Source: Saccharothrix sp. ALI-22-I
Lineage (GTDB): Bacteria; Actinomycetota; Actinomycetes; Mycobacteriales; Pseudonocardiaceae
Direction: 5' to 3'
Assembly: GCF_001984175.1 (NCBI RefSeq)
Contig: NZ_MTQP01000067.1
Span: 372,001-436,000, forward strand
Length of the DNA stretch: 64,000 bases
Within the stretch, counting starts at the first letter, position 1. Each line of letters opens with the position of its first letter. Of the stretch, positions 8,410 to 62,959 are shown in pieces. The notes beneath the pieces are model-generated. The model searched no databases and was not told where the DNA came from. It worked only from the letters and a program-made list of their open reading frames with translations. The position numbers and the translations under genes were made by a program.

Positions 8410-9423
8410 GTGCGTTGGTCGCGTTCCCGGTTGTCCACGGTCACGAAGTCACTCGCGGTCGCGCTGCTCGCCGCGGGCCTGGTGCCTGCGCCCGCGAGCG
8501 CCGCGCCCGTCACGTGTGAGCAACTCGACGTGCCGGTGACGGTGTTCGGCACGCCGCAGTCGATGCACGGGACGCTGTGCACACCGTCGGGCGCCTCCAC
8601 CGTGCAGGTGTTGATACCCGGCGGCACGTACAACAGCTCGTACTGGGACATCTCCTACGCGCCGGAGAGCCGGTCGTACCGGCAGGCGATGAACAAGGCC
8701 GGTATCGCCACGCTCGCCGTGGACCGGCTCGGCACCGGCCGCAGCTCCCGGCCGTTGAGCGCGCTCGTGACCGCGTCCACCCAGGCCCACGCGGTGCACC
8801 AGGTGATCCGCAAGATCCGGCCCCGGTTCGAGAAGGTGATCGTGGGCGGCCACTCGATCGGGTCGGCCATGGCGTTGATCGAGGCCGGGCTGAACCAGGA
8901 CGTGGACGGCGTGCTGGTCACCGGGTTCACCCACCGGATGAACCTGGTGACCGTGGTGCCCGTGTTGGCGGGCATGGTCCCGGCGGCGCTCGACCCGCAG
9001 CTGCGCGGGTACGCGTTGGACCTGGGCTACCTGACCACCGCCGCCGGCACCCGCTACGGCGCTTTCCACACGCCCGGCCCTCAGGTGCCGCAGGCGATCG
9101 GGTTGGACGAGGCCACCAAAGACGTGTTCGCGACGTCGGAGGCGGTGGACACGATCACGTTGAACAACGTGGTCATCCCGTTCACCCGACTGGTCGACGT
9201 GCCGGTGATGATCGCGGTGGGTAACGACACCCACTTCTGCGGGCAGCCGCTGGGCAGTGACTGCACGTCGGCGGAGGCGTTGCGGGCCTCGGAGGCGCCG
9301 TTCTTCTCCGACGCGGCGCGGCTGCACACGTACGTGCTCGACGGCTACGGGCACTCGATCAACTACGCGCCCAACGCGCCCGACTACCACCGTGCCGTGG
9401 TGGAGTGGGCGCGCGGGATCTGA
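8410..9423 (+). CDS. Secreted alpha/beta hydrolase (lipase/esterase-like)
   Basis: 337 residues, GTG start with an ACAGGAGG ribosome site. A signal peptide with cleavage after PASA (about residue 31) directs Sec export. The nucleophile elbow GHSIG places the catalytic Ser at 149. The acid is probably the Asp in VGNDTHF and the base the His in YGHSIN near the C-terminus. The mature protein has Cys pairs (VTCEQ/TLCTP and HFCG/SDCTS) that could form disulfides. It is an extracellular hydrolase of unknown ester or amide substrate. It is convergent with the MarR gene, and a large repeat array lies between the two. Confidence 0.88.
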   Translation: MRWSRSRLSTVTKSLAVALLAAGLVPAPASAAPVTCEQLDVPVTVFGTPQSMHGTLCTPSGASTVQVLIPGGTYNSSYWDISYAPESRSYRQAMNKAGIATLAVDRLGTGRSSRPLSALVTASTQAHAVHQVIRKIRPRFEKVIVGGHSIGSAMALIEAGLNQDVDGVLVTGFTHRMNLVTVVPVLAGMVPAALDPQLRGYALDLGYLTTAAGTRYGAFHTPGPQVPQAIGLDEATKDVFATSEAVDTITLNNVVIPFTRLVDVPVMIAVGNDTHFCGQPLGSDCTSAEALRASEAPFFSDAARLHTYVLDGYGHSINYAPNAPDYHRAVVEWARGI

Positions 9424-9469
9424 GTTACCTCGCCGAGTAGGAGTAGGCAGCGGCGCGTTCACCACTCCC

Positions 9470-9700
9470 CCGCGTGTCCAACACTCAGAACGCGCGTGTC
9501 CAACCTTCAGGTCACGCGTGTCCAACACTCAGAACATCCGAGTTGAACGCTCAGAACGGCGAACTTCACGCCTGAGTGTTCAACTCGGGTGTTCTGAGTG
9601 TTGGACACGCGCGTTCCGAACGTAGGACACGCGCGTTCTGAGTGTTGGACACGCGCGTTCTGAGTGTTGGACACGCGCGTTCTGGGGGTAGGACACGCGG
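9470..9700. repeat. Array of ~22-bp repeats in two opposed blocks
   Basis: About ten units of a 22-bp element related to CGTGTCCAACACTCAGAACG. Units from 9471 to 9560 run in one orientation and units from 9571 to 9700 in the other, so the array is a large imperfect inverted repeat. Some units carry the variant GAGTTGAACGCTCAGAACG. The array fills the gap between two convergent genes. Related units occur at 34783-34850 and 55170-55351. A bidirectional terminator or protein-binding array is possible. Confidence 0.9.
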
Positions 9701-9740
9701 GGCTGGGCGGGAGTGCCTGCGTGTGGTCGTGGCGGCGGGC

Positions 9741-10232
9741 TTACTCGTCGCCCAATGACTCCAGCAGTTGCTTGAGGGTGTTGGCCAACGCCGCCCGTTC
9801 CTGTTCGCTCAACGTGCCGAGCAGGCCGTTCTCCGTGGCGAGGTGGTCGGGCAGGGCGCGGTCGATCAGGTCGCGACCGGCGTCGGTGAGTGAGACGACC
9901 ACGCCTCGGCCGTCGCGCTCGTTCGGGGTCCGGACGACGAGCCCGCGTGCTTCGAGCCGGTCGAGTCGTTGCGTGACCGCACCCGAGGTGACCATCGAGG
10001 CGCGCATCAGCTCGGTCGGGGTCAGCCGATGGGGCGGGGCGCTGCGGCGCAGGGTGGCCAGGACGTCGAACGAGGCGTTGTCCAGGTCGTGCCGGGCGAA
10101 GGTCTTGCCCAGTTCGCCGTCCACCAGGCGGGCCAGGCGCTTGAGCCTGCCGATCACCGCCATCGGGGAGACGTCGAGGTCTGGGCGCTGCGCGTGCCAC
10201 TGACCGAGGACCAGGTCGACGTGATCTGCCAC
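9741..10232 (-). CDS. MarR family transcriptional regulator
   Basis: 163 residues with a winged helix-turn-helix. The recognition region is LTPTELMRASMVTSGAVTQRLDRLEARGLV and the wing is RTPNERDGRGVVVSLT. It is divergent from an EamA transporter. Three AGCTTAG/CTTAG-type elements lie in the shared control region. Repression of itself and the transporter, relieved by a small ligand, is inferred. Confidence 0.92.
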   Translation of the reverse strand: MADHVDLVLGQWHAQRPDLDVSPMAVIGRLKRLARLVDGELGKTFARHDLDNASFDVLATLRRSAPPHRLTPTELMRASMVTSGAVTQRLDRLEARGLVVRTPNERDGRGVVVSLTDAGRDLIDRALPDHLATENGLLGTLSEQERAALANTLKQLLESLGDE

Positions 10233-10237
10233 CGAAC

Positions 10238-10305
10238 TAGCTTAGCGGTGAGGTAAGTCACGTCCAGGATAGCTTAGCGGTGAGCTACTTTGTCTTAGTG
10301 CTAAG
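10238..10305. promoter_or_regulatory. Three MarR-type operator elements
   Basis: The 15-mer TAGCTTAGCGGTGAG occurs twice, at 10238-10252 and 10270-10284, 32 bp apart (about three helical turns). A perfect palindrome CTTAG-TG-CTAAG lies at 10294-10305. The second 15-mer also closes as TAGCT...AGCTA. All sit between the divergent MarR and EamA genes and the last covers the likely transporter start. Assignment to the MarR protein is inferred from position. Confidence 0.65.
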
Positions 10306-33487: not shown

Positions 33488-34768
33488 GTGACCCACGTGA
33501 GCGGACCGGCGCGAGCGACGCAACACGCGAGCAGCAAGTCCGCCGTGCTCGACGTGATCCGCGCGGCGGGCACCATCAGCCGGGTCGGCCTGATCAACGC
33601 CACCGGCTTCACCGGCGCCACCATCTCGACCGTCGTGCGCAAGCTCATCGACGAGGGTCTGGTCGTGGAGACCGGGCGCGCGGAATCGACCGGTGGCAAG
33701 CGGAGAGTGCTGCTCCAGCTCAACCACTCCTCCCGCTACGCCGTGGGCGTGCACCTGGACCACGCGGGCATCACGTACGTGCTGACCAATCTCGGCGGGT
33801 CCGTGGTGGCCCGCATTTCCAGGGCCGGCGCGGGCACGGCCGAACCGCAGACCGTGGTCGGGCGGATGGCGGCCGAGGTGAAGGGCCTGATCGACAGCGT
33901 CGGCATCGACCACAAGCGCGTTTTGGGGCTCGGCCTGGTCTCCCCCGGACCCCTCAGCACGAGCACCGGCATGGGCCTGACCCCACCGGCCATGCGCAAG
34001 TGGGAGGACTTCCCGCTCAACCAGGCGTTGGAACAGGCGACGAGCCTGCCTGTGGTGCTGGACAACGACGCCACGGCGGCGGCGCTGGGCGAGCACTGGT
34101 CGGGCGGGATCGGCGGCACGGCCATCTCGGCGGCGTTGTACATGGGCACGGGCATCGGCGCCGGCCTGATCATCAACGGCATCACGTACCGCGGTGGCAG
34201 CGGGAACGCCGGGGAGATCGGGCACATCTGCGTGGACGCCAACGGCCCCGAGTGCTGGTGCGGGGCGCGCGGGTGCGTGGAGGTGTTGGCCGGTCCGGCT
34301 GCGGTGGTCGCGGCGGCCCGCGCGGACGCGGCGCTGGCCGGGTCGGCGGGCTTGACCGGACGGTCCCGATCCGTGTCGTCGGACTTCGCGGCGGTGAGCC
34401 GGGCGGCACGGCGCGGCGAGCCTTCGGCGTTGGCGATCCTGGAGCGTTCGGCGCGGTACATCGCGGTCGCGGCGCGGACGTTGGCGAACATCATGGACCT
34501 GGAGGTCCTGGTCTTGACCGGCCCCAGCTTCGCGATCGCAGGCTGGGTGTACCTGCCGGTGGTCCGCGACGAACTGGACCGCACGTTCTTCTCCCGTGCG
34601 GCGCACAACGTCGACGTACGCCTGTCCCGCTCCGCCGCCACCGCGTCCGCGATCGGCGGCGCGGCCCTCGTCCTGCAATCCGAACTCGTACCACTGCACG
34701 AGGGCCTCAGGCTCCCCGACAACCTCGCCGACTCCGAACCGGCCGCTCTTCCGGCCTCCGGTGCGTGA
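33488..34768 (+). CDS. ROK family transcriptional repressor
   Basis: 426 residues from GTG 33488 (GTG 33497 is an alternative). An N-terminal winged helix (SAVLDVIRAAGTISRVGLINATGFTGATISTVVRKLIDEGLV) precedes a ROK sugar-binding domain with the DNDATAAALGE segment and zinc motif CWCGARGCVE. It is divergent from the oligosaccharide importer, so it probably represses import (and perhaps the glycosidase genes) until a sugar or sugar phosphate binds. Followed by repeats that separate it from a convergent exporter gene. Confidence 0.92.
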   Translation: MTHVSGPARATQHASSKSAVLDVIRAAGTISRVGLINATGFTGATISTVVRKLIDEGLVVETGRAESTGGKRRVLLQLNHSSRYAVGVHLDHAGITYVLTNLGGSVVARISRAGAGTAEPQTVVGRMAAEVKGLIDSVGIDHKRVLGLGLVSPGPLSTSTGMGLTPPAMRKWEDFPLNQALEQATSLPVVLDNDATAAALGEHWSGGIGGTAISAALYMGTGIGAGLIINGITYRGGSGNAGEIGHICVDANGPECWCGARGCVEVLAGPAAVVAAARADAALAGSAGLTGRSRSVSSDFAAVSRAARRGEPSALAILERSARYIAVAARTLANIMDLEVLVLTGPSFAIAGWVYLPVVRDELDRTFFSRAAHNVDVRLSRSAATASAIGGAALVLQSELVPLHEGLRLPDNLADSEPAALPASGA

Positions 34769-34782
34769 GCGTGGGACTCACT

Positions 34783-34850
34783 GTGTCCTGAGCGTTGAAC
34801 TCGCGGGACCTGAACGTCCGACTCGCGGGACCTGAACGTTCGACTCGCGG
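34783..34850. repeat. ~22-bp repeat array, second site
   Basis: About three tandem 22-bp units of the form CTGAACGTTCGACTCGCGG(GAC), related to the arrays at 9470-9700 and 55170-55351. They occupy the gap between the convergent ROK and MFS genes. Confidence 0.85.
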
Positions 34851-34873
34851 TGCACCCGCGCGGAGTTCGGCGG

Positions 34874-34951
34874 AATTGTCGGACCCCGCCTGCAGAATGA
34901 AGACAGGGGTCCCCGGGCGGGGACCCCTGCGAAACGCTCGTCGGTTGCTTG
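34874..34951. repeat. Dispersed GGTCCCC-hairpin repeat, copy 2, with perfect terminator stem
   Basis: Inverted copy of the element at 11518-11595. Its core is a perfect 10-bp stem AGGGGTCCCC / GGGGACCCCT (34905-34914, 34919-34928) with a GGGC loop. It is flanked by ATTGTCGG and GAAACGC, as in the other copy. It lies between convergent genes and may end both transcripts. Confidence 0.7.
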
Positions 34952-34965
34952 AGTTCCGCCTGCCA

Positions 34966-36414
34966 CTAGGCGTGGTGGCTGGGCGCGCGGCGGGAACGTA
35001 GCCGGTGGCCCAGGGCCACGGCCAGGCCGAAGGCCACGAGGAGAGCGGCGACGGCGAAGGTGCGGTGGGTTCCGCGAGCCACTTCGGCTGACGCGGCCGC
35101 GGTGATGTCACTCGTGCCGGCGGCGAAGGCGAAGACCGCGCCCATGACCGATGCGCCGGTCATGAGGCCCAGGTTCCGGGAGAGGTTCAGCATGCCCGAC
35201 ACGAGGCCGCGCTGCTGTGCGGGGACGTCCTTCATGACTGCGGTGTTGTTGGCGGCCTGGAACAGCGCGTAGCTCGCCGTGACGACAACCAGGGGCAGGA
35301 CGTATCCGATGACGCCGGCCGCCGTGGGCATCAAGGCGAGCACCACAGCTCCGCCGATGATGCCGACCAGCCCGACGACCACCATCGCCCCGGCTCCGAA
35401 GCGGTCGGTGGCGCGGCCTGCCGGGACGCCGATGAGGGCGGACACCGCGGGGCCTGCCGACATCACCAGGCCGACGAGGGCCGGGTCGAGGTCGAGGGCC
35501 AGAGCCAGGTGGAAGGGGCCCACGACGAGAGTGGCCATCATGACGGTCGAGACCAGGGCACTCGTCGTCAGGCCGGCAGCCAGGACGGGGTCGCGGAACA
35601 TCGAGAGGGTGACCAGCGGGGACGAGACCCGGCGCTCGGTGATGACGAACAGGACGAAGCCTGCCGCCGAGGCGATGAGCAATCCGATGGCAAGCGGGCC
35701 GAACGAGTTGCCCTCGATCGTCATGGCCAGCGCGTAGGCGCCCAGGGTGATCGCCAGCAACGCCATGCCCACGGTGTCGAACCGCCTGCGCGCGGAAGTC
35801 GCCGGTGCGGAGTCGGGCAGCACCCGGAATGTGAGCACGAGCGCGAGAAGGCCGAGCGGCACGGCGGCGAGGAAGATCGCACGCCAGCCGAAGACCGCGA
35901 TCAGGGCTCCGCCGAGGGAGGGTCCCAGCGCCGTACCGACTGCCGACATCGTGCCGAGCAGTCCCATGACCCTGCCGGTGCGGTCCGCCGGCACCGTCTC
36001 GCCGACGAAAGCCATGGTCAGCGCCATCATGCACGCGGCACCGACACCTTGCAGCGCCCGGCCGGCGATCAGGAGGGGGAGGTTGGGGGCGAGACCGCAC
36101 AGCAACGTCGCGAGGGTGAACACGGCGATGCCGCCCAGCAGAAGGCGACGCCGGCCGGCCAGGTCGCCGAGTCGGCCCACCCCGATGATCAGCGTCGTGA
36201 TCGCCAGGAGGTAGGCGATCACCACCCACTGAACCTCGTTGAAGGCGGCGTCGAAGGCCACCGCCATGGCGGGTAGGCCGATGTTGGCGATGCTGATGCT
36301 CAGCGAAGGCAGCAGCACGGATAGCGACAGTGCGGTGAGCGCCCAAGCCAGTGGTGGACGGCGCGCAGGCGGTGCCTGGTCGGGCTCGGTGCCCGGAGGA
36401 GTTGCTGGTCTCAT
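34966..36414 (-). CDS. MFS drug exporter, DHA2 (EmrB/QacA) type
   Basis: 482 residues from ATG 36414; a GTG 12 bases upstream is an alternative. Fourteen hydrophobic segments, motif A GVGRLGDLAGRRR after helix 2, and motif C-like GPSLGGALIAVFGWRAIFL after helix 5 place it in the 14-helix multidrug family. The long open frame further upstream runs antisense to the LysR gene and is not coding. Divergent LysR suggests inducible efflux. Confidence 0.9.
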   Translation of the reverse strand: MRPATPPGTEPDQAPPARRPPLAWALTALSLSVLLPSLSISIANIGLPAMAVAFDAAFNEVQWVVIAYLLAITTLIIGVGRLGDLAGRRRLLLGGIAVFTLATLLCGLAPNLPLLIAGRALQGVGAACMMALTMAFVGETVPADRTGRVMGLLGTMSAVGTALGPSLGGALIAVFGWRAIFLAAVPLGLLALVLTFRVLPDSAPATSARRRFDTVGMALLAITLGAYALAMTIEGNSFGPLAIGLLIASAAGFVLFVITERRVSSPLVTLSMFRDPVLAAGLTTSALVSTVMMATLVVGPFHLALALDLDPALVGLVMSAGPAVSALIGVPAGRATDRFGAGAMVVVGLVGIIGGAVVLALMPTAAGVIGYVLPLVVVTASYALFQAANNTAVMKDVPAQQRGLVSGMLNLSRNLGLMTGASVMGAVFAFAAGTSDITAAASAEVARGTHRTFAVAALLVAFGLAVALGHRLRSRRAPSHHA

Positions 36415-36443
36415 GAGGATGGCCACTTCTTGGAGTCGACGCC

Positions 36444-36470
36444 GGTCGTGACGAACGGTCGTCAACGAAC
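36444..36470. promoter_or_regulatory. Tandem 13/14-bp repeat upstream of the MFS gene
   Basis: GGTCGTGACGAAC (36444-36456) is followed directly by GGTCGTCAACGAAC (36457-36470) in the gap between divergent MFS and LysR genes. This is a candidate LysR recognition site. Confidence 0.5.
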
Positions 36471-36565
36471 GTAGGTCTCGTTCGGATCTGGCGGAACGCG
36501 CAAAGATCGCAACCCACTTGTGCACGAAACGCCATGTCCCGGCGGATCCGTGACATCGTGGGCGG

Positions 36566-37468
36566 ATGGCCCGCCCCGATCTGAACTTGCTGGTCACGCT
36601 GGACGTCCTGCTCCAAGAGGGCAGCGTGACGCGGGCCGGGGAACGGCTTGCGCTCAGTCCGTCCGCGATGAGTCGCGCGCTCGCGCGGTTGCGTCGCGCC
36701 ACGGGTGACCCGCTGCTGGTGCGGGCCGGCCGGGGCTTGGTGCCCACGCCCCACGCCTTGGCGTTGCGCGACCGGGTGCGCGGCCTGGTCCAGGAGGCCG
36801 AAGAGGTGTTGCGGCCGGCCGAAGAACTGGACCTGGCGACGCTGGCGAGGACGTTCGCGTTGCGCAGCAGCGACGGGTTCGTGGAGCGGTTCGGCCCCGC
36901 GTTGGTGGCCGAGGTCGGCAAAGAGGCGCCTGGCGTGCGACTGCGGTTCCTGCAGAAGACCAGGAAGGACACCGCTCGCTTGCGAGATGGCGTTGTCGAC
37001 CTGGAGACGGGCGTCATCGAGCACGCCCTGGCGCCGGACGTGGTGAGCCGGCCCCTGTTCACCGACCGGTTCATCGGGGTAGTGCGGAACGAACACCCGC
37101 TGAGCGCGGGGAAGGTGACGACAGCCCGGTACGCCTCCGCGCGGCACGTGCACGTCTCACGGCGAGGTCTGACGGAGGGGCTGGTGGATGAGGCCCTTCA
37201 CCCGACGGGCCGTCACCGGGAGGTGGTGACGGTCGTCGACGGCTTCAGCGCCGCGTTGGCGCTGGCGAACGCTTCGGACCTCGTTGCCACGGTTCCGGAG
37301 CGTCACACCGCGAACCTGCGGCAGGGGATGTGCTCGTTCGAGTTGCCCTTCCGCGCACCGGAGGTGACGGTGTCGCTGCTGTGGCACGTCCGGCTCGACG
37401 CGGACCCGGCGCACCGGTGGCTGCGCGACCGCGTGCTCGATGCGTGCCGCTTCGACGAACCGCGTTGA
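36566..37468 (+). CDS. LysR family transcriptional regulator
   Basis: 300 residues. The N-terminal winged helix (LNLLVTLDVLLQEGSVTRAGERLALSPSAMSRALARLR) covers residues 5-65 and the LysR substrate-binding domain about 95-295. It is divergent from the MFS exporter, which it most likely activates. The effector is unknown. Confidence 0.92.
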   Translation: MARPDLNLLVTLDVLLQEGSVTRAGERLALSPSAMSRALARLRRATGDPLLVRAGRGLVPTPHALALRDRVRGLVQEAEEVLRPAEELDLATLARTFALRSSDGFVERFGPALVAEVGKEAPGVRLRFLQKTRKDTARLRDGVVDLETGVIEHALAPDVVSRPLFTDRFIGVVRNEHPLSAGKVTTARYASARHVHVSRRGLTEGLVDEALHPTGRHREVVTVVDGFSAALALANASDLVATVPERHTANLRQGMCSFELPFRAPEVTVSLLWHVRLDADPAHRWLRDRVLDACRFDEPR

Positions 37469-38491: not shown

Positions 38492-40246
38492 GTGCAAACG
38501 TTCCTACCGTGTCCTACATTTGGCCGTAGCGCCGCTGCCCTCGACACGCAGCGGCTCGGTAAGCAGCGCGTCGAGACGCTGCAAATCCTGCGCGCCCTGG
38601 TGTGGCCCGAGTACGGCTGGAAGCGGCACCCGGCGGTCCTCATGTGGCGCGGCTTCACGCCCGCTCTTGTCGCCTACGGCGTGGCCATGTGCGACGAGTG
38701 GCGAAGCCGTGGCCATCGGGACGGGATGCGTGCCGTGCTGCTCGAATACACGGGTGGCCGGCATCCGACGTGGTCGTGGTGCCTCGCCGAAGGCCTGCTG
38801 CCGCCGTGGCTGGGCGACGACGCCCTGCACCGCAGCCACCAGTCCGCTCTCCTGCGCAAGGACTCCGCGTTCTACCGCCCGCTGTTCCCGGACGTCCCGG
38901 ACGACCTGGACTACGTCTGGCCGCCGCCGGTGTTCCCGATGGACGTCCCCGACACCCGCGGCCTGATCGCGTGCCGGCTCGACCGCCCGCCCCTGCCCGA
39001 CGAGCACTACCCGCTGCTGCTGGGACCGCTCGACCACCGCTCCGGCCCGTCGTCCGCCCGCGTGCCCAGCGAGGCCGACCTGGACGCCATGCTCACCGAG
39101 GCGATCGACCCGAGAAAGGTCCGGTTCTTCCGCCGCGGTCAGCCCTTACCCGCTCCGACCAGCCGTTTCACCCTCGAACTCGACTTCTCGGAAAAACTTC
39201 GGCGGACGTGCCGATCCGGCAGGAGTCCCGTTCGTCGGGTCGGTAAGACCACCGAAGAGGGACCCGCCGAACCACGCCGAACCACGCCGAACCACGCCGA
39301 ACCACGCCGAACCACGCCGGATCTGAAGCACTTTCGACGGCGCACTTCCACCCGGAGGTGCGCCGTTGGCGTGTTCAGGGGGTACGGACGTGGGCACCCT
39401 CCGGGCATGGTGGAGCCCAAGGTGAAGTACCCAGGTCTGACCGACGACGTCCGACCCACTCCAGACCACGGCGAGGCGACTTACCGCGGCACAGGACGGC
39501 TCGTCGACAAGAAAGCCGTCATCACCGGCGGCGATTCCGGTATCGGCCGCGCGGTAGCCCTCGCGTTCGCCCGTGAGGGCGCGGACGTGCTCATCTCCTA
39601 CCTCGAAGCGGAGGAGAAGGACGCCCGCGACACCGCGCGCCTGATCGAGGACGCGGGCCGCACCGCCGTCGTCGTCCCCGGTGACCTGGTGGAAGAGTCC
39701 CAGTGCACCGCGGTCGTGGCACGGGCCGTGGAGGCGTTCGGCGGGATCGACATCCTGGTCAGCAACGCCGCCTACCAGATGGCCGCGCCGAACGGCCTGC
39801 TCGACATCACCGACGAGCAGTTCGACCGCGTGCTGAAGACGAACGTCTACGCGATGTTCTGGCTGTGCCGGGCGGCCGTGCCGCACATGGCGCCCGGCTC
39901 CTCGATCATCACCACGTCGTCCATCCAGGCGTTCCAGCCGTCACCGCAGCTGCTCGACTACGCCACCACCAAGGCCGCGATCGTGAACTTCACCAAGGGC
40001 CTGGCGCAGAACCTGGCCGACCGGCGCATCCGGGTGAACTCGGTCGCGCCCGGCCCGGTGTGGACGCCGCTCATCCCGGCCACCATGCCGGCGGACTCGG
40101 TCGAGGGCTTCGGCGAGCAGGCGCCGCTGGGGCGTGCCGCCCAGCCCGCCGAGCTGGCGCCGCTCTACGTCTTCCTGGCCTCGTCCGACTCCAGCTACAT
40201 CACCGGCGAGGTCATCGGCGTGACCGGAGGCTCACCGATCACGTGA
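38492..40246 (+). CDS. Read-through frame: MSMEG_6728-family protein continuing into an SDR
   Basis: 584 residues without a stop. Residues 1 to about 200 (MQTFLPCPTFGRSAAALD, KQRVETLQILRALVWPEYGW, HRSHQSALLRKD) match the MSMEG_6728 family, related to pyrimidine-dimer glycosylase-like proteins. Residues about 306-584 are an SDR with its own candidate start at 39407. The linker is intergenic in character: it contains an ECF42-like promoter (39209-39236), five 10-bp tandem repeats (39267-39316) and a hairpin (39337-39366). I think these are two genes whose upstream member lost its stop codon, but a fusion product cannot be excluded. Confidence 0.6.
   Translation: MQTFLPCPTFGRSAAALDTQRLGKQRVETLQILRALVWPEYGWKRHPAVLMWRGFTPALVAYGVAMCDEWRSRGHRDGMRAVLLEYTGGRHPTWSWCLAEGLLPPWLGDDALHRSHQSALLRKDSAFYRPLFPDVPDDLDYVWPPPVFPMDVPDTRGLIACRLDRPPLPDEHYPLLLGPLDHRSGPSSARVPSEADLDAMLTEAIDPRKVRFFRRGQPLPAPTSRFTLELDFSEKLRRTCRSGRSPVRRVGKTTEEGPAEPRRTTPNHAEPRRTTPDLKHFRRRTSTRRCAVGVFRGYGRGHPPGMVEPKVKYPGLTDDVRPTPDHGEATYRGTGRLVDKKAVITGGDSGIGRAVALAFAREGADVLISYLEAEEKDARDTARLIEDAGRTAVVVPGDLVEESQCTAVVARAVEAFGGIDILVSNAAYQMAAPNGLLDITDEQFDRVLKTNVYAMFWLCRAAVPHMAPGSSIITTSSIQAFQPSPQLLDYATTKAAIVNFTKGLAQNLADRRIRVNSVAPGPVWTPLIPATMPADSVEGFGEQAPLGRAAQPAELAPLYVFLASSDSSYITGEVIGVTGGSPIT
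39209..39236 (+). promoter_or_regulatory. Orphan ECF42-like promoter
   Basis: TGCCGA - 18 bp - CGTC, one base off the TGTCGA/CGTC pair found upstream of the DGPF gene. The surrounding GGAAAAA...CGATCC...CCCGTTCGTCG context is also shared with that leader (40281-40325). It may drive the SDR or be left from a lost DGPF gene. Confidence 0.55.
39267..39316. repeat. Five tandem copies of a 10-bp unit
   Basis: CCGAACCACG repeated five times without interruption, then CCGG. The unit length is not a multiple of three, so copy-number change would shift the surrounding read-through frame. Confidence 0.9.
39337..39366. terminator. Hairpin within the read-through linker
   Basis: Stem ACGGCGCAC / GTGCGCCGT (39337-39345, 39358-39366) with an inner TCC/GGA pair. 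It resembles an intergenic terminator just ahead of the SDR start, arguing against a true coding linker. Confidence 0.6.
39407..40246 (+). CDS. SDR family oxidoreductase (YghA/YhdF-like)
   Basis: 279 residues from ATG 39407 (MVEPKVKYPGLTDD). The cofactor loop is TGGDSGIGRAV, the NNAG element is SNAAYQM, and the catalytic Ser-Tyr-Lys are SSIQAF, LLDYATTKAA. The PGPVWTPL and GEVIGVTGG segments complete the classical SDR fold. The N-terminal 45-residue extension is typical of stress-related glucose/alcohol dehydrogenase-like SDRs. The ribosome site is weak. The frame is continuous with the upstream MSMEG_6728-like gene. Confidence 0.88.
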   Translation: MVEPKVKYPGLTDDVRPTPDHGEATYRGTGRLVDKKAVITGGDSGIGRAVALAFAREGADVLISYLEAEEKDARDTARLIEDAGRTAVVVPGDLVEESQCTAVVARAVEAFGGIDILVSNAAYQMAAPNGLLDITDEQFDRVLKTNVYAMFWLCRAAVPHMAPGSSIITTSSIQAFQPSPQLLDYATTKAAIVNFTKGLAQNLADRRIRVNSVAPGPVWTPLIPATMPADSVEGFGEQAPLGRAAQPAELAPLYVFLASSDSSYITGEVIGVTGGSPIT

Positions 40247-53970: not shown

Positions 53971-55107
53971 GTGGGCTGGTCCGTGCTGTCCGACACCGTG
54001 CCGATCTACCAGTTGTACGCGCTGCTGTTCGTGGCCACGGGGTTGTCGGACGCCGAGGTCTCGGCGCTGTTCGCGATCTGGTCGACGGTCGCGATCGTGG
54101 CCGAGGTGCCGTTCGGGGCGTTCGCGGACCGGTTCTCGCGGAAGTGGTCGGTCGTCGGGTCGGGTGTGTGCCAGGCGGCCGGGTACGCGGTGTGGACCGC
54201 CTTACCCGGCTTCACCGGTTTCGCGGTGGGGTTCGTGCTGTGGGGCGTGGGCGGCGCGATGTCGTCGGGCGCGCTGGAAGCCCTGCTGCACGACGGCCTG
54301 GTGGCGGCGGGCGCCCCGGAGCACTTCGGCCGGGTCCTCGGCCGCGTCACGGCCAGTGGCCTGCTGGCGCAGATCCCGGCCGCCCTCCTGGCCACGGTGC
54401 TGTTCGCGACCGGCGGTTTCGCGCTCGTCGGCTGGGTGAGCGTGGCGGCCTGCCTGACCGCGGCCCTGGTGGCGACCCGGCTGCCGGAGACGCCGCGGCC
54501 GGAACCGGAGAGCTACCTGGCCACGTTGCGGTCCGGTTGGTCGGAGACCGTGCGGGTGCGTGACGTCCGGCTGGCGGTGCTGGTGGTGGCGATGTTGGCC
54601 GCCATCGACGCGTTCGAGGAGTACTTCCCGCTGATCGCGGCGGACTGGCGGGTGCCGACGGTGTGGGTGCCGCTGGCGACGTTGGCCATCCCGTTGGCCG
54701 GTGCGGCCGGTGCCGCGTTGGGTGGCACCCGGCTGCCGTTGGGTGTGCTGCTGGGCGGTTCGGCGGTGTTGTTGGGTGCGGCGGGTCTGGTCGGTCACCC
54801 GGCGGGGTTGGCGGTGGTCGCGGTGTTCTACGGCGTGTACCGGCTGGTGCTGGTGACCGCCGAGGCCCGGTTGCAGGAGCGGATCACCGGTGACGCGCGG
54901 GCGACGGTGACGTCGGTGGCGGGGCTGGGCGGCGAGGTGTTCGCCATGGGCGTGTACGTGGCGTGGGTGACGGGTGGTGTGAGCGCGGTGTCGATCGCTG
55001 TTCTCATGGTGGCGTTCTTGCTGCCGCGCGCACTCGGACGAGCCGGGAAACACGGTCGTTCACCTGCCCGACCGGAACCGGACGATGCGGTCGTTTCCCG
55101 ACCGTGA
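53971..55107 (+). CDS. MFS transporter with a disrupted 5' end
   Basis: 378 residues from GTG 53971 (MGWSVLSDTVPIYQLYALLF), with about eleven to twelve helices. The same frame has an ATG at 53914 placed 6 bp behind a good -10 box (TAGCCT), as in a leaderless gene. However, its fifth codon is TGA (53926-53928), after which the frame is open through PPPARPLARLAV into the protein. Either translation restarts at 53971 or the gene has a nonsense mutation. Substrate unknown; EmrD/YxiO-like by eye. Confidence 0.8.
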   Translation: MGWSVLSDTVPIYQLYALLFVATGLSDAEVSALFAIWSTVAIVAEVPFGAFADRFSRKWSVVGSGVCQAAGYAVWTALPGFTGFAVGFVLWGVGGAMSSGALEALLHDGLVAAGAPEHFGRVLGRVTASGLLAQIPAALLATVLFATGGFALVGWVSVAACLTAALVATRLPETPRPEPESYLATLRSGWSETVRVRDVRLAVLVVAMLAAIDAFEEYFPLIAADWRVPTVWVPLATLAIPLAGAAGAALGGTRLPLGVLLGGSAVLLGAAGLVGHPAGLAVVAVFYGVYRLVLVTAEARLQERITGDARATVTSVAGLGGEVFAMGVYVAWVTGGVSAVSIAVLMVAFLLPRALGRAGKHGRSPARPEPDDAVVSRP

Positions 55108-55169: not shown

Positions 55170-55351
55170 GAGAGTCGAACACTCAGGCCCCCTGGGTTCA
55201 ACGCTCGCGCCGGCCCACCTCCGTCCTGAGCGTTGAATTCGGGGTACCTGAACGTTCGGCTCTCGCGCGTGTCCAACGTTCAGAACGCGCGTGTCCAACG
55301 TTCGGAACGGGTGAGTTGAACGTTCAGAACGGGTGAGTTGAACGCTCGTGC
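55170..55351. repeat. ~22-bp repeat array, third site
   Basis: About seven to eight units of both sub-types (GTGTCCAACGTTCAGAACG and GAGTTGAACGTTCAGAACG) with two degenerate units at the left. It separates the MFS gene from a response-regulator gene on the same strand, so here it is not between convergent genes. Confidence 0.88.
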
Positions 55352-55396
55352 GGTGTGGGCGTTGGTGTCGCAAGGGGACAGTGCGAGGATTCGTGC

Positions 55397-56053
55397 ATGC
55401 GGGTGCTGCTGGTGGAGGACGACGAGCCGATCGCCGAGTCCCTCACGCGAGGTCTGAGCAGGTACGGGTTCGACGTCGAGTGGGTGAAGACCGGGGCCGA
55501 GGCGCTGGCGGCGGAGCCGACCGACATGGTCCTGGTCGATCTCGGCCTGCCCGACATGGACGGCCTGGACGTGTGCCGTGAACTGCGGGCCCGCGGCGAC
55601 GTGCCGATCATCGTGATCAGCGCGCGGGCGGACGAGACCGACCGCGTGGTCGGGCTGGAGATCGGCGCGGACGACTACGTGTCCAAGCCGTTCGGGGTCC
55701 GCGAGGTGATCGCCCGGATGCGCGCGGTGATGCGGCGGGTCCGGCCCGCGGTCGCCCAGCCGGACGCGACGAGGTCGAGCAGGCTGACGATCGACCGACG
55801 CGCCCGCCGGGTGCACGTCGACGGCATCGAGATCACCTTGACGCCGAAGGAGTACGACCTGCTGGCGTTCCTCGCCGAGGCACCGGGCGCGGTGTTCACC
55901 CGCGAGCAGATCATGGAAGCGGTCTGGGACGCCAACTGGTTCGGCCCGACCAAGACCCTCGACGTGCACGTCGGCGCGCTGCGGCGCAAGCTCGGTGACG
56001 CGGCCGCCGTGGAGACCGTGCGCGGGGTCGGGTTCCGGCTGGTGCTGACGTGA
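55397..56053 (+). CDS. OmpR-family response regulator
   Basis: 218 residues. Receiver domain with phospho-acceptor Asp48 (VLVDLGLPDMDG), conserved Lys in VSKPFG, and a C-terminal winged helix (LTPKEYDLLAFLAEAPG, KTLDVHVGALRRKLG). The stop overlaps the GTG start of the histidine kinase, so the pair is one operon. An earlier in-frame start at 55355 overlaps the repeat array and is rejected. Confidence 0.93.
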   Translation: MRVLLVEDDEPIAESLTRGLSRYGFDVEWVKTGAEALAAEPTDMVLVDLGLPDMDGLDVCRELRARGDVPIIVISARADETDRVVGLEIGADDYVSKPFGVREVIARMRAVMRRVRPAVAQPDATRSSRLTIDRRARRVHVDGIEITLTPKEYDLLAFLAEAPGAVFTREQIMEAVWDANWFGPTKTLDVHVGALRRKLGDAAAVETVRGVGFRLVLT

Positions 56054-61270: not shown

Positions 61271-62959
61271 TCAGCGCAGTGGCAGGCCGAGGTGCGGCCA
61301 GACGACGAGTGCGAACCCGAGCACGAGCGCGGCGTTGAGCGGTGCGAGCAGCGCCGAGAGCTTGAGCAGATCGGACCGGATGTACGTGGCCGTGCCGGGC
61401 ACGGCGGCGAAGATCGCCACCGGCTTGGCCGAGGACGGCATGGTGTGGCAGAACCCGGCAGCCGCGGTCGAGACGAAAGCCACCGCGGCCGGGTTCAGCC
61501 CGAGCGCCGCGGCGAGCGGGATGAGCACCGGGACGAGCACGCTCGACCGCGCGGACCGGGACTGCACCAGCAGGTGCGCCGCCGTGCTGACGCCCACGAC
61601 CGCGGCCAGGAAGACGAGGTCGCCACCGCCGAGACCCGCCATGTTCCCGGTCAGCCAGGCAGCAGCCCCGGAGCCCGTCAACGCCGTGCCGAGGGCCGCG
61701 GTGGCGGCCATGAACAGCAGCAACGACCACGGCACCCCGGCCAGCGCGGGGCCGAGCGCGACGGTGCCCAGCTTCGGCGACGTGATCACCAGCGCGGCGG
61801 CCAGCGCCACCACCGCGGCTGGCACACCGTGCCAGGGCTCGCAGATCCAGGCCGCCGACGCCAGGCCCAGCACGATCAGCGCCCGGCGTTCCGCCGGTTC
61901 GAGGTGACCGGAGCGCGGGGCGTTGGCCAGCCGGCCCAGCCGGTCGGCGTCGACGCGCAGGCGTCGCACCCGGTCGGATCGGCGGGTGAACAGCAGCAGC
62001 ACGACTTCGGCCGCCGCGTGCGATGAGATCACGGCGAGCGGCAGCCCGAGCAGCAGCCACTGGCCGAAACCGATGCCCGCTCCGGTCGCGGTGAGCAGCA
62101 GGTGGCTGGTGATCAGGTGCGCGCCGGCGCCGATCAGGGTCGCGACGGCGGAGAGCAGGATGACCGTGGGGAACAGCAGGGACAGTGCGCGAACCACTCG
62201 CGGCCGGTCGGCCAGTCCTTTGGCCAGTGCGAGGAACACGGGCAGGACCAGCGCGGCGCGTCCCGAGGTGGCCGGCACCGCGAACGCGGTCAGCACGAGG
62301 GCGACCGTGACCAGGTGCGCCAGTTGCCGGACGCTGCGCGCCCTGGCGACCAGACCGACCGCCACCCGCGCGGGCAGGCCTGTCGCGCCGACACCGGCCG
62401 CCAGGACGAACGCGGCGATCAACAGCCAGATCGTGTCACCGCCGAGCGCGCCGAACAGCTCGTCACCACCGAGCACGCCGAGCAGGACCAGCAGCAGCGC
62501 GGCGGAGAGGGCGACGTACGTGTCGTCCAGCCCGGTGAACACCCAGGCGGCGACCGCGACGGCGAACACGAGCAACGTGGCCTTGCCGTCGGCAGGCAAG
62601 CCGGTGCCACCGACGAGGAGGAACAGCGCGACCGCGCCCACACCCAGCACACCGATCACGGCCTTCACCACGGCTCGCTTGCGCCCCGGCACTGCGGTCC
62701 GCCTGCGCCCCGGCCGGCCCGACGCGTTCCGACCCGGCGCATTCCCGCCCGAAGCATTCCGACCCGGCGCGTCCCTGCCCGGCGCGTCCCTACCCGGCGC
62801 GTCCCTACCCGGCGTGGTCAGGTTCGGCGTGTTCAGGTTCGGTGCGGTCCGGTTCGGCGTAGTCCCGGCCTGAGAGGTCCCGGCCTGAGAGGGCTTGATC
62901 GGCACAGTTCTGGCCGACGTCCAGGGTGGCGTCGTGTTCCCGTCTGTCGCGACCTTCAT
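61271..62959 (-). CDS. SLC13/CitT-type anion carrier with a repeat-rich N-terminus
   Basis: 562 residues. Residues about 100-560 contain twelve or so hydrophobic helices with VPATSGRAALVLPVF, PAVVALAAALVI and VLVPVLIPLAAALGLNPAAVAFVSTAAAGFCHTMPSSAKP, the last matching the conserved SLC13/ArsB-like substrate-binding segment. Residues 45-90 are PGRDA/PGRNA pentapeptide repeats preceded by NRTAPNLNTPNLTTP, not normal for the family. The true start may be downstream of the repeats. Likely uptake of a dicarboxylate or glycerate. Confidence 0.85.
   Translation of the reverse strand: MKVATDGNTTPPWTSARTVPIKPSQAGTSQAGTTPNRTAPNLNTPNLTTPGRDAPGRDAPGRDAPGRNASGGNAPGRNASGRPGRRRTAVPGRKRAVVKAVIGVLGVGAVALFLLVGGTGLPADGKATLLVFAVAVAAWVFTGLDDTYVALSAALLLVLLGVLGGDELFGALGGDTIWLLIAAFVLAAGVGATGLPARVAVGLVARARSVRQLAHLVTVALVLTAFAVPATSGRAALVLPVFLALAKGLADRPRVVRALSLLFPTVILLSAVATLIGAGAHLITSHLLLTATGAGIGFGQWLLLGLPLAVISSHAAAEVVLLLFTRRSDRVRRLRVDADRLGRLANAPRSGHLEPAERRALIVLGLASAAWICEPWHGVPAAVVALAAALVITSPKLGTVALGPALAGVPWSLLLFMAATAALGTALTGSGAAAWLTGNMAGLGGGDLVFLAAVVGVSTAAHLLVQSRSARSSVLVPVLIPLAAALGLNPAAVAFVSTAAAGFCHTMPSSAKPVAIFAAVPGTATYIRSDLLKLSALLAPLNAALVLGFALVVWPHLGLPLR
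62713..62893. repeat. 15-bp-based tandem repeats inside the carrier gene
   Basis: CCCGGCGCGTCCCTG-type 15-bp units (62764-62808, nearly identical) grade into diverged CGTTCCGACCCGGCG-type units to the left and TTCGGCGTGTTCAGG-type units to the right. On the minus strand they encode five-residue PGRDA-like repeats. Confidence 0.75.

What the first reader, a model, noticed from the sequence alone, without database searches (positions are those of the whole stretch)
9470..9700. Family of ~22-bp intergenic repeats forming opposed blocks
About ten units related to CGTGTCCAACACTCAGAACG lie here as two opposed blocks, forming a giant inverted repeat between convergent genes. Related arrays occur at 34783-34850 (also convergent) and 55170-55351. 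Units appear in two interchangeable sub-types (GTGTCCAAC and GAGTTGAAC) with the shared half (C)TCAGAACG. The spacing equals two helical turns. This may be a lineage-specific terminator, RNA-structure element or nucleoid/protein-binding array rather than a mobile element.
Basis: partly seen in the sequence, partly recalled or inferred. Interest (0 to 1): 0.75.

Follow-up and report, generated by a model that had tools for sequence, protein, structure and literature searches.

The report
Stop-codon-anchored tandem repeat arrays
This bacterium carries hundreds of short DNA repeats, strung together in strictly ordered arrays that tend to sit right behind the stop codons of genes; they look like a lineage-specific kind of gene-end mark, and their order is kept in some relatives whose repeat letters have changed.

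Summary
The window holds 10, 3 and 8 units of a 22-bp repeat at 9472-9698, 34783-34848 and 55170-55354; its genome (probably Saccharothrix) has 657 against 0 for the reversed pattern. In 856 kb, 29 arrays lie at gene 3' ends, 18-19 between convergent and none between divergent genes; a few divergent cases occur elsewhere. The two sub-types are not interchangeable: body units (GTGTCC type) come first and one GAGTT-type unit closes the block (48 of 50), also in two congeners with partly other body consensus and, more weakly, in a genus with a 21-bp period. Opposed blocks mostly meet at fixed distances, with extra steps of about 11 bp. Many arrays begin within 20 bp of a stop codon, which is often TAA and rarely TAG. 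Single-block arrays fold weakly, mirrored units are not specially alike, and 8 of 10 array-bearing genomes tested lack the REP transposase family. I read them as protein-read gene-end (terminator or insulator) arrays that also spread like REP/BIME repeats; the biochemistry is inference. Paper searches found no description.

The parts
9472..9537 (+). array 1, plus block: three body units (GTGTCCAAC type), 22 bp each
   Evidence: profile scores 30-34
9538..9559 (+). array 1, plus block: closing (E) unit GAGTTGAACGCTCAG
9560..9566 (.). centre of array 1: 7-bp spacer between the two opposed E units (start-to-start 29)
9567..9588 (-). array 1, minus block: closing (E) unit, decayed (score 10.8)
9589..9698 (-). 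array 1, minus block: five body units (GTGTCC type)
8431..9423 (+). flanking gene, alpha/beta hydrolase (Abhydrolase_6), stop TGA 48 bp before array 1
9741..10232 (-). flanking gene, MarR regulator, stop TAA 42 bp from array 1
34783..34804 (-). array 2: closing (E) unit GAGTTCAACGCTCAG, 14 bp from the stop of the ROK gene (antisense to it)
34805..34848 (-). array 2: two body units (GAGTCG type)
33545..34768 (+). flanking ROK-family gene; its orthologue in G143 has a decayed 3-unit array, in G088 and G127 none was seen
34966..37074 (-). flanking MFS gene (start uncertain)
55170..55213 (+). array 3, first block: start-cap unit GAGAGTCGAACACTC and a decayed E unit
55221..55264 (-). array 3, minus block: E unit GAATTCAAC and one body unit
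55267..55354 (+). array 3, last block: two body units, E unit GAGTTGAAC, second decayed E unit
53971..55107 (+). MFS gene upstream of array 3
55397..56053 (+). response regulator gene downstream of array 3

Best explanation
These are modular gene-end arrays. Each block is a directional run of 21- or 22-bp sites: [optional start cap]-body(n)-end unit, placed behind a gene, often right behind its stop codon, so that convergent genes often have two opposed blocks between them. I think a sequence-specific protein of the host, not yet identified, binds the units in register (one site per two helical turns) and makes a barrier that ends or insulates transcription at the gene's end; the end unit closes the bound row. 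The arrays are also dispersed repeats that get gained, lost and homogenised, much as REP/BIME repeats do. Shown here: the unit, the order, the preferred distances, the place at gene ends, the stop-codon link, the turnover. Inferred: binding by a protein, and the effect on transcription.
For: Gene-end placement: in 856 kb of the own genome, 29 arrays of 2 or more units (9 lone hits left out) were 18 convergent, 10 same-direction, 0 divergent, 1 overlapping a weak ORF between convergent genes, although 121 of 430 gaps of 60 bp or more are divergent. G143: 10 convergent, 7 same-direction, 0 divergent, 2 inside genes, of 19. Nearness to the stop: in same-direction pairs of G143 the array lies 0-7 bp from the upstream stop with 18-455 bp on the far side, 6 of 6; in G000 0-13 bp in 8 of 11. 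Stop codons within 25 bp of an array: TAA 24 of 74 against 135 of 1826, TAG 3 of 74 against 374 of 1826; in separate loci of the own genome TAA 10 and TAG 2 of 24. Order: T at unit position 6 in the last unit 48/50, 22/23, 15/17 and 9/12 in four genomes, in the other units 5/150, 3/54, 2/37 and 12/40. Distances: 73 junctions of opposed end units that match an exact-core pattern are all 46-48 (68) or 57-58 bp (5) long out of 35-65 allowed, as expected if the helical face matters. Against RNA pairing: weak structure in single-block arrays, no mirror effect. Blocks run in the gene's own direction at 67 of 98 stops (two stops of one array are not independent).
Against: No RNA 3' end, binding protein or expression result is in hand. 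Only 18 of 109 convergent gaps in the stretch carry an array, and three congeners (G021, G059, G110) have only 4-7 matches, so the arrays are not a general or essential terminator. At about a third of stops the block next to the gene runs against it. The first array of the window lies 42-48 bp from the stops; in G000, G088 and G003 some same-direction arrays lie 50-113 bp from the stop. Divergent placements were called for 2 of 25 arrays in other loci of the own genome and 1 of 13 in G003. The TAA excess is not seen in G003 (1 of 8). REPs show the same nearness to gene ends, so placement alone does not prove function. The 11-bp step rests on 5 of 73 junctions and on 5 of 30 (at least one counted in both); 3 of those 30 (9, 44 and 56 bp) fit no step.
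Confidence: 0.4

Rival explanations
1. A non-autonomous dispersed (selfish or neutral) repeat family, like REP/BIME or BOX, that survives only where it does no harm, which is just behind stop codons; the order of units reflects how copies are made, not a function.
For: Presence or absence at orthologous sites of two congeners: of 16 arrays of G143 tested (17 found), 6 were shared with G088, 5 called as found only in G143 (one of these has a diverged array in G088 on inspection, two are clean and in short gaps, two lie in rearranged gaps), 5 had no syntenic pair. Body consensus differs between genomes: CC at positions 6-7 in 125 of 150 non-last units of G000, CG in 34 of 37 of G088; G143 is mixed, 38 CC and 13 CG of 54. 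Patchy occurrence in the family. REPs also lie within 20 bp of ORF 3' ends and their termini often give the stop codon (PMC3733652, passages).
Against: No transposase family tied to the arrays: Y1_Tnp (PF01797) was found in 2 of 13 genomes, that is in 2 of the 10 array-bearing ones (G000 and G103). No match in phages, plasmids or viral contigs. A 0-7 bp distance from the stop in gaps of up to hundreds of bp, and the depletion of TAG, are more than harmlessness asks for.
Confidence: 0.3
2. An RNA element: the transcribed array loads Rho or another RNA-binding factor on the ribosome-free RNA right behind the stop codon (C-rich leader, then pyrimidine pairs about every 11 nt; the spacing of the pairs is my reading of the consensus, no call).
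For: Arrays often start at the stop codon; the first 12 nt behind 25 stops near arrays (within 40 bp, convergent) have C 0.58, G 0.19 against 0.38, 0.31 behind 128 other convergent stops. Blocks run with the gene at 67 of 98 stops. In 8 of 9 single-block arrays the unit strand folds less stably than its complement (my reading of the table).
Against: The units themselves have about as much G as C. About a third of the blocks next to a stop run against the gene. In opposed arrays the RNA would fold into a long hairpin. The 11-bp steps between opposed blocks are not explained.
Confidence: 0.15
3. A long RNA hairpin or DNA cruciform formed by the opposed blocks ends transcription or protects mRNA 3' ends.
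For: Opposed arrays fold very well: z from -2.9 to -22.8; array 1 has 84-nt arms at 90%.
Against: 9 of 29 arrays in the own genome and all 13 found in G003 have one orientation only; the nine have z from +0.3 to -6.0, six tested in G003 from +0.6 to -2.4. Body units do not match their mirror partners better than other units: 0.798 in 47 pairs against 0.799 in 122 pairs. No T-tract terminator found near array 1.
Confidence: 0.1

Closest known systems
REP / BIME repeats (GTAG- and CGTC-tagged palindromic repeats)
   Same: Dispersed, intergenic, mostly between convergent or same-direction genes, close to ORF 3' ends, termini sometimes giving the stop codon; dimers of units (PMC3733652, passages read).
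   Different: The unit here is not a palindrome and single blocks fold weakly; head-to-tail with a 21/22-bp period; ordered caps; Y1 transposase family absent from 8 of 10 bearers tested.
BOX elements of Streptococcus pneumoniae
   Same: Modular: end modules around a variable number of tandem middle modules (PMC3049150, passages read).
   Different: BOX modules are larger and folded; no link to stop codons in the passages I saw; sequences were not aligned.
TTF-I / Sal-box terminators of mammalian rDNA (recalled, no paper read)
   Same: Tandem directional protein sites just behind the gene that stop the polymerase.
   Different: Eukaryotic, one locus; no protein known here.
Iterons of plasmid origins (recalled)
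   Same: Tandem 17-22-bp direct repeats in helical phase.
   Different: Here chromosome-wide and at gene ends.

Membership tests
REP/BIME | short palindromic unit that forms a hairpin | tested here: not met
   Single-block arrays: z from +0.3 to -6.0 in the own genome (9 arrays, both strands), +0.6 to -2.4 in six arrays of G003; units are head-to-tail
REP/BIME | RAYT (Y1 transposase) in the genome | tested here: not met
   PF01797 in 2 of 13 genomes; absent from 8 of 10 array-bearing ones. The own genome has two such genes; whether they are RAYTs was not examined
REP/BIME | placement at ORF 3' ends, convergent or same-direction gaps | tested here: met
   exceptions
BOX-like modular repeat | fixed end modules around a variable tandem middle | tested here: met
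BOX-like modular repeat | homology to boxA/B/C | not tested
   no alignment made
Intrinsic terminator | GC-rich hairpin followed by a T run | tested here: not met
   0 found at window 9000-10300, array 1 only
CRISPR array | repeats separated by unique spacers | tested here: not met
   units abut, period 22
Described RNA family | match to an Rfam model | tested here: not met
   0 matches at gathering scores in the window
Transposon end or MITE | target duplication and terminal inverted repeats with a partner element | tested here: inconclusive
   no target duplication seen by eye at three sites compared between G143 and G088; no match in plasmids or phages; no search against insertion-sequence libraries
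Roadblock terminator array | bound protein and transcript ends at the array | not testable with these tools
   needs Term-seq and pull-down

The most novel reading that the evidence does not exclude
A new kind of bacterial gene punctuation: a directional, capped row of protein sites starting at the stop codon, read by a dedicated protein that evolves with the unit, so that each lineage has its own letters and period (21 or 22 bp) but the same order.
Probability: 0.2. Interest if true: 0.85.

Novelty: new variant of a known kind. Interest (0 to 1): 0.6.

Why it matters
How high-GC actinobacteria mark the ends of transcripts is, as far as I recall, poorly known. A repeat family with a strict order of units, tied to the stop codon and kept across genera while its letters change, points to a reader that could be pulled down with a single DNA bait. 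If the arrays are only dispersed repeats, they are still an unusual case: a REP-like life style without a palindrome and, in most bearers tested, without the REP transposase family.

Tried and rejected
REP/RAYT membership: rejected. RNA hairpin as the common feature: rejected by single-block arrays and by the mirror test. Base pairing inside one unit (GWGT with RYTC, GTCC with GGAC): considered by eye; position 3 (A or T) faces a nearly constant T and the common body unit breaks the second stem, so I dropped it without a count. Mobile DNA carriers: no match in viral contigs, plasmids, phages. Spread beyond the family: 13 of 196 other genomes of the class had one match each at up to 1 mismatch, the rest none; a diverged consensus would be missed. 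In one search the profiles for G088 and G003 drifted and those tables were not used; they were made again with stricter settings. Lone hits were left out of the array counts: 9, 55 in G143 (where the reversed profile also gave 22 hits against 139). Two predicted divergent cases (of 25) and one in G003 (of 13) were not re-examined; they may be gene-calling errors or real exceptions. Gene calls are from my own ORF scorer, not a standard annotator; counts of convergent arrays vary between 17 and 19 of 29 with its settings. The convergent test used 19 of 29. The order of units was not seen in the few G014 loci and only partly in G148 and G030.

Paper searches aimed at this repeat; searches for comparable systems. 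I saw listings only (10-15 rows of up to 544 papers), and passages of PMC3733652, PMC3049150 and PMC4210621. None that I saw describes it; the library lacks most subscription journals.

Full report
What is there. The window carries three arrays of one 22-bp unit. Array 1 (9472-9698) has four plus and six minus units between an alpha/beta hydrolase gene and a MarR gene that converge; array 2 (34783-34848) has three minus units between convergent ROK and MFS genes; array 3 (55170-55354) has blocks of two plus, two minus and four plus units between an MFS gene and a response-regulator gene that run the same way (families). The whole genome (10.3 Mb, 69 contigs) has 324 plus and 333 minus matches to GWGTYSAACRYTCAGRACG with up to two mismatches; the reversed pattern has none. 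Without any pattern, intergenic DNA of 856 kb of the same contig shows 31 clusters of self-similarity at shift 22 and 0-5 at the other shifts from 15 to 30.

Who has it. Three consecutive units matching the degenerate pattern exactly occur in public contigs of Saccharothrix luteola, S. carnea, S. sp. NRRL B-16348 and an Actinophytocola MAG (6 stretches), so the window is most likely Saccharothrix; that these belong to Pseudonocardiaceae is recalled. In 150 genomes of the family, the own one included, counts are patchy: 657 in the own genome, 356 and 342 in two congeners (G088, G143), 55 in G127, but 4-7 in G021, G059 and G110, like most of the family; 30-120 in four genomes of another genus (g4), 265 in one genome of g31 (G148) whose five listed relatives have 3-12. 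Reading loci of such genomes shows that several have their own consensus and period: 21 bp in G003, G103, G106, G014; 22 bp in G030 and G148. In G003 the pattern-free scan peaks at 21 (11 clusters); G110 has no cluster at 21 or 22. Of 196 other genomes of the class, 13 have one match with up to one mismatch and the rest none. Viral contigs, phages and plasmids have none.

The order of units. In each run of same-strand units, read 5' to 3' on the unit's own strand, body units (GTGTCC-A/T-AC in the own genome) come first and a GAGTT-type unit comes last. By the single test 'T at position 6': last units 48 of 50, 22 of 23, 15 of 17 and 9 of 12 (G000, G143, G088, G003); all other units 5 of 150, 3 of 54, 2 of 37 and 12 of 40; first units 0 of 50, 0 of 23, 1 of 17, 0 of 12 (picking a random unit of the block reached the observed number in 0, 0, 0 and 6 of 5000 trials). 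Loci of G127, G103 and G106, and in part G030 and G148, show the same trend by eye; those of G014 do not. The first unit is often a cap of the type GAGAGTCGAACCCTC with more C at positions 11-13 (0.88 against 0.52 in G000; 0.78/0.39, 1.29/0.86 and 0.75/0.65 in G143, G088, G003). The end units are alike in the three Saccharothrix genomes (GAGTTGAA, GAGTTCAA, GAATTCAA; the first was not among the common ones of G088), while the bodies of G000 and G088 differ: CC at positions 6-7 in 125 of 150 non-last units of G000, CG in 34 of 37 of G088, 38 CC and 13 CG of 54 in G143.

Fixed distances. Inside a block the step is 22 for 143 of 144 same-strand neighbours, 44 for one. Where two end units face each other, 73 junctions in three genomes that match an exact-core pattern have lengths of 46-48 bp (68) or 57-58 bp (5) between the outer ends of the 13-base cores, none of the other lengths from 35 to 65; G127 had no match (my count of the plus-strand rows). 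Without that pattern the plus-to-minus steps of neighbouring units (30, leaving out one inside a gene) are 28-30, 39-40, 49-51 or 72, with three exceptions (9, 44, 56). Where two body units meet back to back, exact-core matches are 22-24 bp long, or 44-46 with one more unit in between, and 31 once; the scans show 22, 24, 31, 35 and 37. Steps of about 11 between end units fit a face of the double helix.

Place. In 856 kb, 29 arrays of at least two units: 18 convergent, 10 same-direction, none divergent, one overlapping a weak ORF between convergent genes; nine lone hits inside genes were left out. A stricter gene set gives 17, 11, 0 and 1. Background gaps of 60 bp or more: 72 convergent, 237 same-direction, 121 divergent. 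Convergent excess P = 3e-8 with 19 of 29; no divergent array by chance P = 7e-5. G143: 10, 7, 0 of 17, with 2 more inside genes. G088: 4, 4, 0, with 2 inside genes and 1 at the edge, of 11. Separate 3-kb loci of the own genome: 12, 11, 2 of 25. G003: 2, 8, 1 and 2 inside genes, of 13. In the 18 convergent gaps that hold arrays, of 109, half have 32 bp or less besides the array.

The stop codon. Of stops with an array within 25 bp (or up to 12 bp overlap), TAA makes 24 of 74 against 135 of 1826 elsewhere (P = 1e-9), TAG 3 of 74 against 374 of 1826 (P = 1e-4). The TAA excess is strong in G000 (15 of 30), weaker in G143 (5 of 24) and G088 (3 of 12) and not seen in G003 (1 of 8). A common join is stop-CC(C)-first unit. 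When the block runs against the gene, the stop is often the TGA inside the end unit itself (distance -9: 1 of 10 antisense joins in G000, 4 of 7 in G143, 2 of 4 in G088; 4 of 9 in separate loci). Blocks run with the gene at 52 of 74 stops, 67 of 98 with the separate loci (P = 0.0004, but the two ends of an array are not independent). Same-direction arrays of G143 lie 0-7 bp from the upstream stop and 18-455 bp from the next start (6 of 6); in G000 8 of 11 lie within 13 bp of the stop and 3 at 50-113; G088 has 0, 0, 3 and 62; G003 3-106. The window's own arrays are looser: 48 and 42, 14 and 117, 62 and 42 bp (array 3's far end is the next start).

Turnover. Between syntenic 400-kb stretches of G143 and G088, 16 arrays of G143 were tested: 6 shared, 5 only there, 5 without a syntenic pair; one of the five 'only there' has a diverged array in G088 on inspection, two lie in rearranged gaps. 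Of 10 arrays of G088 tested: 6 shared, 2 only there (one in a rearranged gap), 2 without a pair. At one site the genes of G088 are 9 bp apart where G143 has an 88-bp array; the stops are TGA without and TAA with the array on both sides; another site shows a remnant of about half a unit in G143, with TGA there and TAA beside the array of G088; a third keeps TGA on both sides in both genomes. The third site is the orthologue of the window's array 2: three decayed units in G143 and none in G088 or G127. At shared arrays many body units follow the genome's own consensus, so copies seem to be exchanged within a genome.

What it is not. Y1_Tnp, the family of RAYTs, is found in 2 of 13 genomes and absent from 8 of the 10 array bearers among them. 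Opposed arrays fold strongly (z -2.9 to -22.8), but nine single-block arrays have z from +0.3 to -6.0 and six of G003 from +0.6 to -2.4. Mirrored body units are no more alike than others: 0.798 (47 pairs) against 0.799 (122 pairs), P = 0.86. No T-run terminator near array 1, no Rfam match in the window.

Reading. The arrays combine the life style of REP/BIME repeats (dispersed, at 3' ends, sometimes giving the stop codon; PMC3733652, passages) with a modular build like BOX elements (PMC3049150, passages), but the unit, the order and the phased distances point to a row of protein sites. I think a protein reads the row and ends or insulates transcription there (0.4 as a whole); the plain dispersed-repeat reading stays close (0.3). 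The paper searches (for this repeat; 50, 51, 63, 64 for comparable systems) listed no description of the family.

Noticed in passing
window 34871-34945: A second dispersed repeat right behind array 2, with a strong hairpin (GGGGTCCCCGGGCGGGGACCCC): 10 matches, itself included, in 856 kb of the own genome, 6 between convergent and 4 between same-direction genes; 2 in G143, 1 in G088, none in G110 or G003 stretches. Possibly a dispersed terminator hairpin.
   Followed up: partly
G143 C1, near 666365 (L141) and one more copy on the other strand: Another repeat holding GATTTTACATGGGG, two copies in 400 kb of G143, in intergenic stretches that differ from G088.
   Followed up: no
G003 C1:67093-67239 (L196): Seven 21-bp units lie inside a predicted gene; a 21-bp period keeps the reading frame, so the repeat may add a 7-residue protein repeat.
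   Followed up: no
window 39265-39319: Perfect 10-bp tandem repeat CGCCGAACCA, 5.5 copies.
   Followed up: no
window 62714-62892: Run of 15-bp tandem repeats of several kinds.
   Followed up: no
G000:C52:16101-16466 and G000:C51:107701-108051: Two Y1_Tnp matches in open frames of 133 and 152 aa in the own genome; none in G088, G143 or G127. Whether arrays lie near them was not checked.
   Followed up: no
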